IMG/VR virus record: IMGVR_UViG_3300023091_000001
Span: 1-53,124 of that record
Strand: one strand, 5' to 3'
DNA length: 53,124 nucleotides
Source: a virus
The translations under genes were made by a program, and so were the position numbers. Every line of letters starts with the position of its first letter. Position 1 is the stretch's first letter. The notes under the pieces are model-generated. The model did not search any database. It was given only the letters and a program-made list of their open reading frames with translations, and was not told the DNA's origin. Below are positions 145 through 24,454 of this stretch, piece by piece.

Positions 145-2131
145 CAGGAGCCACAACCGCACTTGTGCCAGCTGCTGTGATTAATCCCTTAGCATTAACA
201 GTAAAGTTCGGTATAGCCGTGCTAGAACCGAAAGAGCCGGTGTTAGAGTTAACTGTAGTGAGAGTTGCTACTTGAGACTGGGACCCACTGGCTGGACCGG
301 CTGTCACGTCTCCGGTGAGCTGATTAATGGCGTTTACCGTTACAACACCTTGAGACCCATTAACACTCTGTACACCCACTGCTGGGGTAGTTAATTCCCA
401 CTGGGTGCCATTATACAGTACCAAGTCACCTACTTGAAAGTTGACCATTGAGGAGTTAGAAAGTCCGGGAATAGGTCCCGCGTAAGCTGTTGAGACCCAA
501 TACACATTACCTGCTGTCCCCGAACTATCAGATAAAGCCGGGGTGTTAGTGGAGGGATTCCAGACTCCTTGATATTCTAAAATGTTATTGGGAAGGTAGG
601 TTGCGGGGATTTTACTCGAGGCGTTTAATGGGCACACACCACTAGCTGCGCCAACTTCGGATTGTGTAACATAGGTTCCTGAAAGGTCTGGTACGTCTGT
701 GGTTGTTAAAGCTCTGAAAGTGGGCGTCGCTGCTGACCCGCTGCTTGGACCCGCAAAGACTGTATTGGCAATTTGAGTCTGGAAGGAGCCGGTTAAGGTA
801 CCATTGGTCGTAACCGGGCTGTTTGTCACTGAGAATACAGATGCAGGTAGGCTTAATCCAACAGATGTGACAAACGTGCCGGGAGCGGAGGTAATGGCTG
901 TCCAAGAGCTTCCGCGATACGCGTATAAGACGTTATCCGTCGCATCGTAGGTGAAAGGCAACGACCCAGTGTATATTGCTGATGGTGTTCCAGACGGAAC
1001 TCCGTTCATACTTTTAAGGTATAAAAATCCAGATATCGCTCCTGTGGGTAGTAGTATATCTTGGGCAGATCCTACAGGGCCAAGAATCGTATTCGCATAG
1101 CCGTCTACTGTAATAGCTGCATATTGCGAACCGTAGTTTATCCCGTTCACTCCGTTGGAATATATAATTACTTGACCGGAATTCGTTGGACCAGGGCTAT
1201 TCTGGCTACGACCAGGCGTAATTTGAACTAGACCCCCATTCCCACCCCCAGCGCTTAGATTGCGACCGGCCTGTATGGCGATTGTTCCCGCCTGACCCGA
1301 GCCATAGTTAACTGCACCAGTGATTGAGATCTGAGGAGCTAGGGTTGATATATTTGAATAACCCGGTGTCACAGTTACTGACCCAGCAGCTACCCCACTT
1401 GCGGGAATCCCTAAGAATGCGTTTGGGTAGGTGGTAAAATATAAGGATCGTCCAGAGAGTGCGGATAAATTCTCCGATGAAGACACATAATCAGTAGACG
1501 ATGTCAAGAACCCAAGAGTCATACCAGCTACAGTCAGTGTACCAGTATGGGTTCCTCCGCCCGCGCTAGTATTAGTGCCAATTGTTCCGCTTGTGTTAAC
1601 GCTCAACGTGTTAATGTCTGATAAATTTTGGTTGCCCCAATCAACGGCGGCGGAGGGAGAGTTAGTACCGTCAAGCCTCAAATAAACACCATTCAAAGCG
1701 GATGGTAGGGAATAATAGCCTAACACTGAAGAGCTGTTAGTTCCGTAATAGCTTGTTGCACCCGGTGTTGCAGTATCGTTAACTAAGCTAACATTCCCAG
1801 AGATATTCACCAAACTATCAATAAATGAAAGTGTGTTACTAGAACTTATCTGAATTGTGCTGGCCGTGGGAGTAGTAATTGAAATTCCTGTCCCTGCAGT
1901 TAGTGTTAATGCACCAGTTTCACCATTGAGACTGGACACTCCAGTAGGAGGACTCAATAGCACGTTCCATGTACTGGTAGCCGCGTCCCATACATAAATC
2001 ATATCAGTTGCTGTAACAACTCTGACATCACCATCAGAATTATTGGTAGTGGGGAGTTGGGCTAGTGTGTCTACGGGAGCCTTCCAGGTATAGAAGCCGT
2101 AAGCAGGCAGATCCCGATACTGGGTACTCAT
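1..2131 (-). CDS. Tail fibre protein, N-terminal part (continues at right end of window)
   Basis: A minus-strand frame starts with ATG at 2131 and is open for 710 codons to the window edge. It continues in phase at 52980-52136; if the window is circular the whole protein is 991 residues. The N-terminus (MSTQYRDLPAYGFYTW) is followed by Ser/Thr/Gly-rich beta-structured sequence with fibre-type phrases such as GVSSLNGETGALTL, LRLDGTNSP and VANGGTGKTT. This is typical of phage fibres that bind the host surface. The start overlaps the stop of the preceding small membrane-protein gene (TAATG), so translation is probably coupled. The shaft phrases are generic, so the exact fibre type is not known. 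Confidence 0.85.
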   Translation of the reverse strand, partial: MSTQYRDLPAYGFYTWKAPVDTLAQLPTTNNSDGDVRVVTATDMIYVWDAATSTWNVLLSPPTGVSSLNGETGALTLTAGTGISITTPTASTIQISSSNTLSFIDSLVNISGNVSLVNDTATPGATSYYGTNSSSVLGYYSLPSALNGVYLRLDGTNSPSAAVDWGNQNLSDINTLSVNTSGTIGTNTSAGGGTHTGTLTVAGMTLGFLTSSTDYVSSSENLSALSGRSLYFTTYPNAFLGIPASGVAAGSVTVTPGYSNISTLAPQISITGAVNYGSGQAGTIAIQAGRNLSAGGGNGGLVQITPGRSQNSPGPTNSGQVIIYSNGVNGINYGSQYAAITVDGYANTILGPVGSAQDILLPTGAISGFLYLKSMNGVPSGTPSAIYTGSLPFTYDATDNVLYAYRGSSWTAITSAPGTFVTSVGLSLPASVFSVTNSPVTTNGTLTGSFQTQIANTVFAGPSSGSAATPTFRALTTTDVPDLSGTYVTQSEVGAASGVCPLNASSKIPATYLPNNILEYQGVWNPSTNTPALSDSSGTAGNVYWVSTAYAGPIPGLSNSSMVNFQVGDLVLYNGTQWELTTPAVGVQSVNGSQGVVTVNAINQLTGDVTAGPASGSQSQVATLTTVNSNTGSFGSSTAIPNFTVNAKGLITAAGTSAVVAPAGTLSGTTLNSTIVSSSLTSVGTISTGIWNGTTIAVANGGTGKTTAFT

Positions 2132-10530: not shown

Positions 10531-10923
10531 TTATCCTCGTAAGTCCTTTACTAAAAATGTCATTTCTGGCACTGACCAGCCTTGTTTAACAAAGTGTTTT
10601 ACCAAAGAATTATGGTCAGTCCACGCTAGTAGGATGTGCATTCCACAGTTTTTAGCGTAAGCTTCTAGAGCGGCGTGCAGCTCATCAATAGCCTTGGCCC
10701 GCAGTTTCAATCCAGACAGCGGATTGGTGATTAACCAGTCGATAATACCCACGTTTTGCTGCCCTTTAATCCCCATCATGGCAATTGGCTCTCCCTCATG
10801 GAAGGCGAGGAGGGCGTATTCGGGATAGGGCTCAACAGCATACCCACTTGATTTATGACCCACTACCCACTTATCCACCTCAGTGTAATCCGATAACTCT
10901 AGGCCAAATTTGCGGATTTCCAT
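10531..10923 (-). CDS. GNAT-fold acetyltransferase-like virion-module protein
   Basis: A 130-residue protein with the GNAT order: a strand with EYALLAFHEGEPIAMMGI, a strand with GIIDWLITNPLSGLK, a helix RAKAIDELHAALEAYAKN, and ILLAWTDHNSLVKHFVKQGW near the end (the acceptor-loop N..l...f.k.GF). In T7-like phages a small acetyltransferase-like protein sits between nozzle and ejection protein genes, as here. The stop lies 1 base before the ATG of the Gln-rich protein; the start overlaps the stop of the nozzle gene. The acetyl-CoA binding loop is poor, so it may be structural rather than enzymatic. Confidence 0.7.
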   Translation of the reverse strand: MEIRKFGLELSDYTEVDKWVVGHKSSGYAVEPYPEYALLAFHEGEPIAMMGIKGQQNVGIIDWLITNPLSGLKLRAKAIDELHAALEAYAKNCGMHILLAWTDHNSLVKHFVKQGWSVPEMTFLVKDLRG

Positions 10924-18420: not shown

Positions 18421-19047
18421 CTATTTTTTTGTGTACTCTATAGCTTTGTCGCGTGTTTTAGGATTATCGAGAATTGCGATAGCTCGGTTGCAGCCATGGC
18501 AGAGTAGCCCACGAACCCGACCAGTTTTGTGATCGTGATCTACAAAGAGACCCCATTTACCTCTTGGGGGTCCTCCACAAATAGCGCATACTCCTTTTTG
18601 TTCATAAAGCATTTTAGAAAAATCGGCTGGTGTAAGCTTGTACTTTTGAAATCTCATCTTCTGGTAATTTTTGTGATTGTAAGACCTCATTTTTGCAATA
18701 TAGTGTTCACGATTTAACTCACGCCACTTACCCGTTGTTGCGTTTTTACAGTATTTGCACGTGTTCCTATGCCCGTCCGACATTCCGTAATCTCGATAAA
18801 AATTAATCATAGGTTGAGGATTGGATTGAGTACACCTAGGGTTAGTACAATTTTTTTCAGTTCTTTTTGCTTCAACAAAACCTTCATTAAACGCTTTGCG
18901 TAAGTTATCTCTTCTGTTTTTTTGCTGGGCTGCTTTACAGTATTTGCATTGACTCTGCAAACCGCTCTGGTTTCTTCTGTCAGATAAAAAATTAGTTTCT
19001 GATTGCGGATTTAGCTGATTGCAGTTCTTGTTACTACAGGTCTTCAT
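18421..19047 (-). CDS. Endonuclease VII-like homing endonuclease, free-standing
   Basis: A 208-residue protein. Two N-terminal zinc-binding repeats (C-x4-C ... C-x2-C at about residues 4-45 and 52-95, with QCKYCKAA and TCKYCKNA) are followed by a recombination endonuclease VII-type core: CAICGGPPRGKWGLFVDHDH, KTGRVRGLLCHGCN and AILDNP. The DHDH..G.VRGLLC..CN signature gives the His-Me nuclease site with its structural zinc. The start at 19047 has GGAGGT 7 bases upstream; a longer frame to 19095 has no such site. It lies just downstream of the intron-split capsid gene, behind its own promoter, and is related to the endonuclease inside intron 1. Confidence 0.85.
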   Translation of the reverse strand: MKTCSNKNCNQLNPQSETNFLSDRRNQSGLQSQCKYCKAAQQKNRRDNLRKAFNEGFVEAKRTEKNCTNPRCTQSNPQPMINFYRDYGMSDGHRNTCKYCKNATTGKWRELNREHYIAKMRSYNHKNYQKMRFQKYKLTPADFSKMLYEQKGVCAICGGPPRGKWGLFVDHDHKTGRVRGLLCHGCNRAIAILDNPKTRDKAIEYTKK

Positions 19048-19115: not shown

Positions 19116-19144
19116 AAAAAGGGCTTGATCTTTCGACCAAGCCC
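19116..19144 (-). terminator. Intrinsic terminator after the major capsid gene
   Basis: Minus strand: GGGCTTGGTC, GAAA tetraloop, GATCAAGCCC, then TTTTT. This is a 10-pair stem (one G.U) with a stable loop and a U-tract, 26 bases after the capsid stop codon. It should separate the very highly expressed capsid transcript from the genes downstream. Confidence 0.85.
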
Positions 19145-19169: not shown

Positions 19170-21498
19170 TTATGCTGATAGTAAGCAGCGTCCGTTCCAA
19201 CCCGGAGCGTTGTTGCAAAGGTTTCCGTAGTACGTATTTGTTATCATTGAGTTTTTTATCTCAATTTCTTTGGCTTCGACTTTTGCCAAAGTCCAGCATA
19301 CATTTTCAATCTTTCGATTGTCATCCACTCTTGGAGATTTTTTATTCTGTGTAATCACAGTTTCAATCCCTACGCGTTACGCAGCCATCAACCAGTTACA
19401 GTCAATGGTTTGCTCGGTATTAGCATCACAGCTTTCACCGATTTTGGACGATTTTACATCGGCAACTACGGATTTGCGGAAACAGCCTTCCAAGGCTTGC
19501 AATCCATGAGTTACAGTCACAATGCTCGAATCCGATAACTCTATGATATTATTACCGATGCGGATTTCGAGCGCATCTGCCGTTCCCACGCGTAACCCTT
19601 CGAGACCTTCGAGTCCATACGTAAGCACGTGTGGCATTTTACCGAGGGATTTCAGCTTCCATGTGTCGAGCTGAAGCATGAACGCGTTCTTCGCGGGGCA
19701 GTTTCTGTCAGCGATGACAGTCATCTTCCCGGTCTGACCGCTGAGCTGTATCCCTTCGAAAGAGATATCAACTTCGTCATGTTTCACGTCAACATACTGG
19801 ATCTTCGCACCCAACGACTTCTCAAGGCTGGCATAAGAGACTGGGTTAATGAAAACATAGTCACTTGATGCACCCATGAGGTACATTTGGGCGTTCAGGT
19901 CGATCAGAGCTTCCTCGATGGGCCTATCATTCAGAACCTGATAGACACCAGAAAGCCTTTGGTCGGCTGAGCGGTTAACATTCCAGAACGAGTCAGTGCT
20001 TGCGACAGAGGTCGGAATCCACGCGGCCATTCCAGAAATCTTCAGGAAGGAGCCTGTGGTCGACGCACCAGCCGCTGGCAAATCACCGTCCACGCTGATG
20101 AAGCTGAGGGCGGCCCAGTTGCCTGACAATGAGCTGGAGACTGAGGTGCTGGAGATACCAGTCACGATGCCATTGATTCGGTCAATGCCCGTGATCTGAA
20201 CGGTGTCGGCTGAAGGAGCGCTGCCGTCGGTCGCAGACGCGACGAGCAACATTCCGACTTCCAACTTCGTGGTATCGGCGGCGTTTGTGATTGTGAAAAC
20301 TACAACGTTGGTTGCACCTGAGGTGGTCGGAGCAGCCGCGATTTGGGCGCGGGTTCCTGTGCCGTCACCAAACAGATCGGACGCGAGGTCGTTCGTGATA
20401 TTCCGAAAACCAGTGTCCATGTGGAGTTTGCATTCATCCACGAATGCGCCAGCGTTGTCCTTGGTGGCTTCGAGAAGTTCGTTCGTGATCGAAACAACTT
20501 CGTAGTTGCTGACACGATAAACCAGGAAGCTCGCCACGGCAGCGGCGGTCTGTTGTGATTGGGCGTTACTGAACGTTGCACTACGGCCCTGTGGGGCACC
20601 GTATACTAGGGGCACTGGGAAATACTTCAAATATCAGCTAGTTAGCTGACTTTGTTATCGCCGGGGCTCTTTATCCCAGGCTTCTTAAACTTCTTTAAGT
20701 ATGCGGCTAATTGTTCAATCATTTCGAGACTATCTTGCATATATCCTAATGCTGGATTACACCGATCACACAATAAAGCTCTCACGACTCCAGTCTGATG
20801 ATCGTGATCTACAGCAAATTTGCGTTTCATTTGGTCTTGCACGATTCCACATGATGCACAACATCCGTTTTGAGCATTAAACATGGTATTGTACTGCTCA
20901 ACACTAATCCCGTAATGCCGTTTTAAATCATGCTTAAAATACGTTTGTTTTCGACTTTCTGGATGCTTGGCATTCCAAGCGAGTCTAAATTCACGTTTAC
21001 AGGATTTACATTGGCTGTTGAACCCATCGGAATGTTGCTTATCTTTGTGAAAAGCGCTAGTCTCTTTTTCTATCTTACACTTGCTACATACTTTTAGTTT
21101 AAGTTCAGAGCACATTTTTTGACCTCCACCATCTACAAAGGTATCACATATCATCCGATACCGCAATACTTTTGTTTCGGTCTCAGTCAATCGGACACTC
21201 TTGGGAGCATTATATTCTGGCATTGCCAGGGTCAACTCCTGCTCGTTACGCTGATTATGTCTTTTTACTTCCATAATTTAGCTCGGTATTTGCATCTCAG
21301 CATTCACCGATTTTGTCCAATTTAACGTTGGCAAGTTTATCGTTCACCAACAAACCCTTGGGTTGATTCGTCCTTAGGGACTAGAGCCAAAAACGGATTC
21401 CGTTTAAAGATCAGGTCCTTCATGACGTAACTGGGATCGTCGTATAGTTCCTTCAGTGCCGCGATTTGGTTACTAACATTGGCATATACAGCAGCCAT
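19170..21498 (-). CDS. Major capsid protein, three exons split by two group I introns
   Basis: Exon 1 is 21498-21346 (51 codons, MAAVYANVSNQIAALKELYD to ESTQGFVG), exon 2 is 20627-19554 (358 codons, KYFPVPLVYGAPQGRSATF to LEIRIG), and exon 3 is 19232-19170 (20 codons plus stop, YYGNLCNNAPGWNGRCLLSA). Joined, they give a 429-residue protein with no phase change. The join FVG-KYFPVPLVYG and the ending APGWNGR are what HK97-type podovirus capsid proteins of this kind show. Exon 1 has GAGG 9 bases before its ATG. Read without splicing, exon 2 would need a TTG start with no ribosome-binding site and would end in 58 residues of intron sequence. The scaffold gene is upstream, a strong terminator downstream. 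Confidence 0.88.
19233..19553 (-). ncRNA. Group I-type intron 2 in the major capsid gene, no internal gene
   Basis: A 321-nt insert. The 5' exon end CATCGGT (19560-19554) pairs with GCCGATG (19463-19457) over 7 bases with U.G at the splice site (P1, with a loop of about 90 nt). CCGTAGT (19471-19465), one base upstream of that guide, pairs with ACTACGG in the 3' exon (19231-19225) as P10. The last intron base is G (19233). P4 is TCGGT/ACCGA (19441-19437 with 19418-19414); P5 is AGC/GCT (19433-19431 with 19424-19422). I did not draw P3, P7 and P8. The stretch reads through from exon 2, which makes the unspliced frame look like one gene. Confidence 0.82.
20628..21345 (-). ncRNA. Group I-type intron 1 in the major capsid gene, carrying a homing endonuclease
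   Basis: A 718-nt insert. The 5' exon end TGTTGGT (21352-21346) pairs with GCCAACG (21332-21326) as P1, with U.G at the splice site and a loop of about 13 nt. ACTT (21336-21333), next to the guide, pairs with AAGT at the start of the 3' exon (20627-20624) as P10. The last intron base is G (20628). P4 is TCGGT/ACCGA (21310-21306 with 21287-21283) and P5 is TGC/GCA (21302-21300 with 21293-21291). A terminal hairpin CAGCT-AACT-AGCTG stands just before the 3' site and overlaps the stop of the endonuclease gene. Core helices P3, P7 and P8 were not fully drawn. Confidence 0.85.
20642..21115 (-). CDS. Intron-encoded endonuclease VII-like homing endonuclease
   Basis: A 157-residue protein inside capsid intron 1. 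One N-terminal zinc repeat (VCSKCKIEKETSAFHKD, then QCKSCKRE) precedes the endonuclease VII core: CCASCGIVQDQ, FAVDHDHQTGVVRALLCDRC, and NPALGYMQDS. The start at 21115 is chosen because GGAGGT lies 6 bases upstream. A longer frame to 21274 would translate the conserved intron core and is not credible. Homing endonucleases of this type cut intronless alleles so that the intron is copied in. The gene at 18421-19047 is a relative with two zinc repeats. Confidence 0.85.
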   Translation of the reverse strand: MCSELKLKVCSKCKIEKETSAFHKDKQHSDGFNSQCKSCKREFRLAWNAKHPESRKQTYFKHDLKRHYGISVEQYNTMFNAQNGCCASCGIVQDQMKRKFAVDHDHQTGVVRALLCDRCNPALGYMQDSLEMIEQLAAYLKKFKKPGIKSPGDNKVS

Positions 21499-23248: not shown

Positions 23249-23857
23249 ATGCCAGGACACGCATTAGGTCGCGTAGCAATTTATCTGCGCTGCAGCACAA
23301 ACGAACAAACCACGGATTCCCAGCGGGTCGAGCTGCAGGAGTACGTTGCTCATCGCATGTACGCTACTTTGGAAATTTTTGATGACGCTGGCCACTCCGG
23401 GGCTTCAACCAATCGTCCGGAAATGAAACGGCTGATGAAACTGGCTCGTGAGCGGAAGATTGATACCGTGGTAGTATACAAACTCGACCGCTGGTTTCGC
23501 TCTCTGAGTGAGACCGTGTGGACCCTGAAAGAGTTGACCGAGTTGGGGATTTCGTTTATCGCTCTAAAAGACCAGATTGATTTAACCACTGCGGTCGGAA
23601 GGCTGACTGCAAATATGCTAGCGAGCTTTGCGGAGTTCGAGCGCGAGATTATTTCCGAACGAGTTCGAAGCGGGTTGAAGGCGGCTAAAGCTAAGGGCAA
23701 GCGCTTGGGGGCGAAACCCAAAGACGTGGACATGACGCAAGCTCGTGCTCTGATTGCGTCCGGTAAGTCTTACGGAGAGACTGCTAAGATTACGGGACTA
23801 CCGGCTAATTTTATCTATCGCCGACTAAATCCCAAGGCTCCAGAGACTGTGGAGTGA
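23249..23857 (+). CDS. Serine recombinase (resolvase/invertase family)
   Basis: A 202-residue protein with the full resolvase layout. The catalytic Ser16 lies in IYLRCSTNEQTTDSQR. DAGHSGASTNRPEMKRLM follows at about residues 46-63, VVVYKLDRWFRSLSET holds the active-site arginines, and a long E helix (LASFAEFEREIISERVRSGL) leads to a C-terminal helix-turn-helix (ALIASGKSYGETAKITGLP). AGGAGG stands 6 bases before the ATG. Length matches small resolvases and invertases rather than large serine integrases. Possible roles are resolution of genome multimers, inversion of a segment, or integration with help. Direct repeats 360-440 bases upstream are candidate sites. Confidence 0.88.
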   Translation: MPGHALGRVAIYLRCSTNEQTTDSQRVELQEYVAHRMYATLEIFDDAGHSGASTNRPEMKRLMKLARERKIDTVVVYKLDRWFRSLSETVWTLKELTELGISFIALKDQIDLTTAVGRLTANMLASFAEFEREIISERVRSGLKAAKAKGKRLGAKPKDVDMTQARALIASGKSYGETAKITGLPANFIYRRLNPKAPETVE

Positions 23858-24370: not shown

Positions 24371-24454
24371 TTGATGCATATTATGATGCATATTATGATG
24401 CGTATTATGATGCATATTATGATGTGTATTACTATGCGTATTATGATGCATATC
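24371..24454 (+). repeat. Seven 12-bp tandem repeats (ATGATGCATATT)
   Basis: Seven contiguous 12-base units, consensus ATGATGCATATT with one or two changes each (for example ATGATGCGTATT and ATGATGTGTATT). ATGCAT is a short palindrome inside every unit. Spacing of just over one helical turn means a binding protein would sit on one face of the DNA. They lie in non-coding DNA and are therefore candidate iterons of an origin or of a partition or packaging site. Confidence 0.8.

What the first reader, a model, noticed from the sequence alone, without database searches (positions are those of the whole stretch)
19414..21310. The two capsid introns share a core with compensatory changes
A 34-base core (minus strand 21314-21281 in intron 1; 19445-19412 in intron 2) is identical except at three positions. 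Two of the three are the partners of one P5 base pair (TGC/GCA in intron 1, AGC/GCT in intron 2). This is covariation inside one genome, direct evidence that P4-P5 is a selected RNA structure. The introns are related copies that changed their guide sequences to suit different targets.
Basis: seen in the sequence. Interest (0 to 1): 0.85.

Follow-up and report, generated by a model that had tools for sequence, protein, structure and literature searches.

The report
Two group I introns in capsid gene
A phage's major capsid gene is cut by two self-splicing group I introns of one widespread family; they are real but of a known kind, and relatives of this gene also carry tiny core-less intron-like inserts that look new.

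Summary
A 34-nt core occurs twice on the minus strand (21314-21281, 19445-19412), identical at 31 positions. Both cores lie in group I introns of the major capsid gene: intron 1, 21345-20628, 718 nt, with an Endonuclease_7 HNH gene; intron 2, 19553-19233, 321 nt, gene-free. Intron-less capsid homologues fix both splice sites exactly, and P1 and P10 fit at both.

A covariance model built without the window finds only these two places (144 and 136 bits). On 27 family members 96.8% of cells pair. Between the two introns alone, 17 pairs change on both sides and stay paired. The quoted P5 pair is one of these and the family's least consistent P5 pair (8 of 27 unpaired).

"Related copies" is not shown. 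They are 63% identical, no closer than typical unrelated members. No relic of endonuclease loss is visible in intron 2. Each guide sequence fits its own exon.

The window finding is a new member of a known kind. By-catch of higher interest: 13 inserts of 33-57 nt in related capsid genes. They keep group I guides and splice sites but no catalytic core, and each gene also holds a full intron. Removal in trans is inferred, not shown.

The parts
21346..21498 (-). Major capsid protein exon 1 (51 aa, ends ...GFVG)
   Evidence: Spliced translation is 429 aa, collinear with intron-less homologues; exon 2 part hits Pfam SU10_MCP
20628..21345 (-). Group I intron 1 (718 nt), 5' splice site GGU|GAACG, 3' splice site UUUG|AAGUAU
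   Evidence: Homologues read GFAG|KYIPVPL without a break; P1/P10 fit (p 0.016)
21327..21332 (-). Intron 1 guide GCCAAC, pairs exon GUUGGU 21351-21346 with U.G at the splice site; ACUU 21336-21333 pairs exon 2 AAGU (P10)
   Evidence: changed sequence but same pairing in the same-site intron of L020 (GCAGGU/GCCUGC)
21102..21325 (-). Intron 1 catalytic core P3-P7
   Evidence: Covariance model R1 built without the window: 135.8 bits, E 9e-32; helices
21281..21314 (-). 34-nt P3/P4 junction, P4, P5, start of P6 (the reported core, intron 1)
20642..21115 (-). HNH endonuclease gene of intron 1 (157 aa). Start codon in J8/7, codons 2-3 are the P7 3' strand (UGCUC 21112-21108); its first and last codons supply the P9 strands CUUAAAC (21103-21097) and GUUUAAG (20690-20684)
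   Evidence: Pfam Endonuclease_7 E 1e-23; same start geometry (ATG at -14 or within a few nt of it) in L033, L043, L057, L107, L126, L150 and L020
21123..21127 (-). GGAGG ribosome-binding site of the HNH gene, abutting/overlapping by one base the P8 3' strand (21123-21119)
   Evidence: Sequence, helix coordinates; function inferred
19554..20627 (-). Major capsid protein exon 2 (358 aa)
19233..19553 (-). Group I intron 2 (321 nt, no gene), 5' splice site GGU|AAUAAU, 3' splice site UACG|UACUAC; long P1 extension
   Evidence: Homologues read EIRIG|YYGNL without a break; P1 8 bp and P10 up to 8 bp, p 5e-5
19458..19463 (-). Intron 2 guide GCCGAU, pairs exon AUCGGU 19559-19554; GUAGU 19469-19465 pairs exon 3 ACUAC (P10)
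19290..19456 (-). Intron 2 catalytic core P3-P7
   Evidence: R1: 144.3 bits, E 7e-34
19412..19445 (-). 34-nt core, intron 2
19246..19291 (-). Intron 2 P9 (CUUUGGC/GCCAAAG) and following hairpin (AUUGAG/CUCAAU); no HNH relic
19170..19232 (-). Major capsid protein exon 3 (YYGNLCNNAPGWNGRCLLSA and stop)
19116..19144 (-). Terminator-like hairpin GGGCUUGGUC GAAA GAUCAAGCCC + U run after the capsid gene
   Evidence: Sequence
18421..19047 (-). Free-standing Endonuclease_7 HNH gene downstream of the capsid gene
   Evidence: Pfam E 2.4e-18; homologue at the same place in intron-less L017, 48% identical

Best explanation
The major capsid gene on the minus strand is split into three exons by two self-splicing group I introns (group IA-like, with P7.1/P7.2) of one very widespread phage intron family. 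Each intron folds its own P3-P9 core. A guide sequence pairs with the end of the upstream exon (P1, with U.G at the cut). Guanosine bound at P7 attacks, and the exons are joined with help of P10, restoring the 429-aa capsid protein. Intron 1 also carries an HNH endonuclease gene in P9 that presumably drives its homing. The gene's start is placed so that its ribosome-binding site, start codon and second and third codons lie in and next to P8 and P7, so the folded ribozyme should hide the start. Intron 2 is a gene-free member at another site. The two share the core because the whole family does. They most likely arrived separately; neither is shown to be a copy of the other. Shown: splice junctions by homology, structure by covariation, guide pairing. 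Inferred: actual splicing, homing, hiding of the start site.
For: Intron-less homologues define both junctions exactly and the spliced protein is collinear with them. Model R1, built without the window, finds exactly these two places in 53 kb. Structure with the P3/P7 pseudoknot: 96.8% of cells paired vs 70.7% shuffled and 32-44% when slid; covariation 0.642 vs 0.173; 33 of 44 pairs with two-sided changes. Between intron 1 and 2 alone: 17 two-sided compensatory pairs, 2 broken. P7 covaries across the family (GCGUA/UACGC, GAGUA/UACUC, GCGCA/UGCGC, GAGCA/UGCUC). P1/P10 fit. Endonuclease_7 in intron 1. An intron with an HNH gene at the same capsid site in L020, with a compensating guide.
Against: No Rfam model matched, even at E 10; the family lies outside what Rfam's group I model detects here. 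Splicing itself was not observed. Intron 1's P1/P10 alone is only modestly significant (p 0.016). The family tree is too weakly resolved to exclude that the two are sisters.
Confidence: 0.95

Rival explanations
1. Intron 2 is a copy of intron 1 (or the reverse) that moved within the gene, lost or gained the HNH gene and re-tuned its guide.
For: Same family, same gene, 31/34 identical core; a sister relation is not rejected (p-AU 0.29).
Against: 63% identity over the core, rank 43 and 56 of 87; each is closer to introns of other phages; intron 2's 34-mer is 33/34 identical to three foreign introns. No HNH relic in intron 2. Intron 1 shares its site with an intron plus HNH in L020, pointing to site-specific homing between phages.
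Confidence: 0.1
2. The shared stretch is a conserved protein-coding segment or a repeat, not RNA structure.
For: An ORF can be read through each (19377-20630 and 20642-21274).
Against: Those reading frames leave the capsid or HNH homology; 44 pairs covary including the P3/P7 pseudoknot; intron-less homologues lack the stretches.
Confidence: 0.01
3. The free-standing HNH gene downstream of the capsid gene (18421-19047) mobilises intron 2, as in collaborative homing.
For: It lies about 190 bases from intron 2 and is related to the intron 1 enzyme (32% identity).
Against: The same kind of gene stands at the same place next to intron-less capsid genes (L017 48% identical; also L186, L191, L193, L198), so it does not depend on intron 2.
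Confidence: 0.15

Closest known systems
Group IA introns of phages (Twort, SPO1, T4 types; reviewed in PMC3984707; Bastillevirinae survey PMC11878797)
   Same: P3-P8 core with P7 and P3 crossing, P7.1/P7.2 between P7 and P3, P1 with U.G, P10, terminal G, HNH gene in a loop overlapping the core
   Different: Not recognised by Rfam here; P7 is usually GCGUA/UACGC; HNH start placed at the P7 3' strand
crAss-like phage introns, e.g. uncultured phage cr6_1 (L147, 162 bits) and the multi-intron MCP genes of PMC7886860
   Same: cr6_1 carries a direct relative of this intron; Delta-group crAss-like phages have introns in MCP and a Zeta-group MCP is split into five fragments
   Different: Capsid protein and phage group differ; introns there were identified mainly by their nuclease genes
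Capsid-gene intron of mycobacteriophage LittleE (PMC3706429), also lactococcal phage Tuc2009 cited there
   Same: Likely group I intron with a putative homing endonuclease in the major capsid gene; splicing was shown experimentally for LittleE
   Different: One intron, unrelated capsid family
Engineered group I spliceozymes (PMC4094466)
   Same: A group I core removes another intron in trans by pairing at two splice sites: the mechanism proposed for the mini-introns of related phages
   Different: Artificial; no natural example was found in the papers searched

Membership tests
Group I intron | P3, P4, P5, P6, P7, P8 helices with the P3/P7 pseudoknot | tested here: met
   96.8% cells paired, 33 of 44 pairs with two-sided change; R1 hits
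Group I intron | P1 guide pairing with U.G at the 5' splice site, intron ending in G, P10 | tested here: met
   GUUGGU/GCCAAC and AUCGGU/GCCGAU; ends UUUG and UACG; P10 present
Group I intron | Self-splicing chemistry | not testable with these tools
   Needs in vitro transcription or RT-PCR
Group I intron, subgroup IA | Extra stem(s) P7.1/P7.2 between P7 and P3 | tested here: met
   P7.1 97.0% and P7.2 90.6% of cells paired with two-sided changes
Subgroup IA2 proper | Placement among classified IA1/IA2/IA3 introns | not tested
   No reference set of classified introns was aligned
HNH homing endonuclease (Endonuclease_7 type) | Conserved catalytic domain | tested here: met
   PF02945, E 1e-23 and 2.4e-18
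HNH homing endonuclease (Endonuclease_7 type) | Cuts the intron-less site | not testable with these tools
   Needs an enzyme assay; same-site intron plus HNH in L020 is indirect support
SU10-like major capsid protein | Pfam SU10_MCP match and collinear homologues | tested here: met
   E 6e-7; 45-63% identical homologues over 400+ aa

The most novel reading that the evidence does not exclude
Introns of this family act not only on themselves but also on core-less 'mini-introns'. In related phages the same capsid gene carries 33-57 nt inserts that keep the group I 5' splice site, guide (P1), P10 and terminal G but have no catalytic core, and that break the reading frame unless removed. They would be excised by the core of a neighbouring full intron: a natural group I spliceozyme, analogous to degenerate group II introns depending on trans-acting machinery. 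One such mini-intron (L033) sits within one nucleotide of the site of intron 2. None was found in the window itself.
Probability: 0.4. Interest if true: 0.9.

Novelty: new member of a known kind. Interest (0 to 1): 0.42.

Why it matters
It gives a worked, covariation-proven model of a common phage intron family that Rfam did not detect here, with exact capsid splice sites. It also shows that this capsid gene is a hot spot for group I introns. Through its relatives it exposes core-less mini-introns. If confirmed, these would to my knowledge be the first natural case of one group I ribozyme removing another element's intron, which bears on how dependent introns and a trans-acting splicing machinery could arise.

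Tried and rejected
Rfam at gathering and E 10: nothing but a chance CRISPR-DR9 fragment. Exon 2 against named phages by tblastn: no match. GTDB genome scan for the capsid protein: no relative. Search for 'relatives' of the record: not available for virus records. First P7 guess (UCCCA/UGGGA next to P7.1) was dropped when the family alignment showed GAGCA/UGCUC and GCGUA/UAUGC. Loose scan for mini-introns over all loci: 48 hits in 1.75 Mb, little above the codon-shuffled null (11 in 515 kb), so only homology-supported cases are claimed; strict scan of the window: none. Pattern search at the TDD site was mostly chance matches, one new true case, L273. Translational bypassing for the minis: no case has matching take-off and landing codons. 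Papers on natural trans-acting or core-less group I introns: none found in four searches.

Full report
Observation. The two 34-nt stretches are present as described, differ at three positions, and are the only matches in the window within three mismatches. They lie in the major capsid gene (SU10_MCP), read on the minus strand.

Exons and introns. Twelve capsid relatives were fetched and then 80 more; most are uninterrupted. They read ...SGFAGKYIPVPL... and ...EIRIGYYGNL... where the window is broken. Removing 21345-20628 and 19553-19233 gives a 429-aa protein collinear with them. Both introns start after U and end in G. Intron 1: exon GUUGGU pairs with guide GCCAAC; exon 2 AAGU pairs with ACUU next to the guide. 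Intron 2: AUCGGU pairs with GCCGAU; exon 3 ACUAC pairs with GUAGU. Shuffling the introns gives p 0.016 and 5e-5 for these joint pairings.

Structure. Twenty-five of these plus the two window introns were aligned. A hand-drawn structure with P3, P4, P5, P6, P6a, P7, P7.1, P7.2 and P8, P3 and P7 crossing, pairs in 96.8% of cells. The shuffled mean is 70.7% and slid versions give 32-44%; the covariation score is 0.642 against 0.173. A model built from the 25 foreign sequences scores the window introns 144 and 136 bits and nothing else in the window. Comparing only intron 1 and intron 2, 17 pairs differ on both sides and still pair: P3 2, P5 1, P6a 4, P7 2, P7.1 2, P7.2 2, P8 4. Two P6a pairs are broken in intron 1.

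The quoted P5 pair. It is one of the 17. In the family it is U-A, A-U, G-U, C-G or U-G in 19 of 27 members and unpaired in 8, the weakest of the three P5 pairs; the middle pair covaries in four types with none broken. The conclusion that P4-P5 is a selected structure is right; the single pair chosen was a thin basis.

Are they copies? Over the core the two introns are 63% identical; 42 other family members are closer to intron 1 and 55 are closer to intron 2. In the 34-mer, 31 of 300 foreign pairs are as similar or more. The tree is weakly resolved and a sister relation is not rejected (p-AU 0.29). L020, a capsid relative, has an HNH-bearing intron at exactly the site of intron 1 with a different but compensating guide (GCAGGU/GCCUGC). 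That favours homing into a fixed site between phages over duplication within this gene. Intron 2 shows no trace of an endonuclease gene. L045 does show such a loss: the HNH C-terminal fragment remains after P9.

The HNH gene of intron 1. It lies in P9. Its ATG is in J8/7, its second and third codons are the P7 3' strand, its GGAGG touches P8, and its first and last codons form the P9 helix CUUAAAC/GUUUAAG. Seven other introns (L020, L033, L043, L057, L107, L126, L150) begin their HNH gene at or within a few bases of the same point, and all but L126 end it with a P9 strand of the same kind. Overlap of endonuclease genes with the core is known for group I introns (PMC3984707); the inference here is that folding for splicing hides the start of translation.

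The free-standing HNH gene at 18421-19047 is a relative of the intron enzyme (32%). Its homologues stand at the same place next to intron-less capsid genes, so it need not serve intron 2.

Known or new. Group I introns in phage capsid genes, and several in one capsid gene, are known (PMC3706429, PMC7886860). A direct relative of this family is in crAss-like phage cr6_1. The finding is a new member of a known kind.

By-catch: core-less mini-introns. Aligning interrupted capsid genes showed 33-57 nt inserts in addition to full introns. Site DLV|YKK: L020, L206, and L150 with weak P1. Site NP|WLAM: L045, L058. Site TDD|KEYMKD: L057, L126, L212, L215, L273. Site SP|DGFAG: L033, L231. Site RIA|YYGNL: L033, one nucleotide from the site of intron 2. 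Each follows a U, ends in pyrimidine-G, holds a guide pairing with the upstream exon, and immediately 5' of it a P10 strand pairing with the downstream exon. Removal restores the capsid frame. Most lengths are not multiples of three and stops are present. P1+P10 is better than in nearly all shuffles for 11 of 13 (p from 5e-5 to 0.002); L150 (bulge needed) and L033 at SP (one P1 mismatch) fail the strict test. P-values are not corrected for my choice among a few frame-compatible boundaries. P10 compensates at the TDD site (UCUUU/AAAGA, UCCUU/AAGGA). A full intron starts at exactly the DLV site in L212, with a similar 5' end and a compensating guide. In the capsid-selected set, 73 uninterrupted genes have no internal stop, and minis occur in 5 of 7 genes with full introns (Fisher p 9e-7, not corrected for relatedness; genes with neither are uninterrupted by definition, so the telling fact is that none has a mini alone). 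Ribosome bypassing does not fit, as take-off and landing codons never match. The simplest reading is deletion of the core with splicing taken over by a neighbouring full intron, as engineered spliceozymes do (PMC4094466). This is inference; splicing was not observed, and the strict scan found none in the window.

Noticed in passing
L020 4241-4273; L206 2966-2999; L045, L058, L057, L126, L212, L215, L273, L033 (two, second near 10572-10617), L231, L150, all in major capsid genes: Core-less 33-57 nt group I-like mini-introns (U|...G|, guide with U.G, P10) that must be removed for the capsid frame to be open; every gene also has a full group I intron. Possible natural trans-splicing by a neighbouring core.
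   Followed up: partly
L212 (DLV| site) vs L020/L206; L057/L215 (NP site) vs L045/L058; window intron 2 vs L033 (RIG|YYG): The same or a one-nucleotide-shifted capsid site holds a full intron in one phage and a mini-intron in another, suggesting minis are core-deleted introns.
   Followed up: partly
L045 from 12119: Intron with only the C-terminal fragment of the HNH gene left after P9: a caught case of endonuclease-gene loss.
   Followed up: partly
L057 207-422 (-) and L058 about 695-895 (-): A second, smaller group I-like intron type (about 200-216 nt, AACGACUA.../GAUAGUCUGAAC) in the same capsid genes, not found by model R1.
   Followed up: no
L007, L014, L049, L056, L080, L087, L102: Single contigs carry three or more introns of this family.
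   Followed up: no
L148 (Streptococcus phage P4761, 1485-1521, between two TerL fragments): The 3' end motif of intron 1 (GATAAAGAGCC..GATAACA) is 92% identical to the end of an insertion splitting the terminase gene in many S. thermophilus phages.
   Followed up: partly
window 23249-23857 (+): Serine recombinase/resolvase-like protein (202 aa) next to the structural genes.
   Followed up: no
window about 24371-24450 (+): Short ATGATGCAT/ATTATGATG-type repeat tract in a gene-poor stretch.
   Followed up: no
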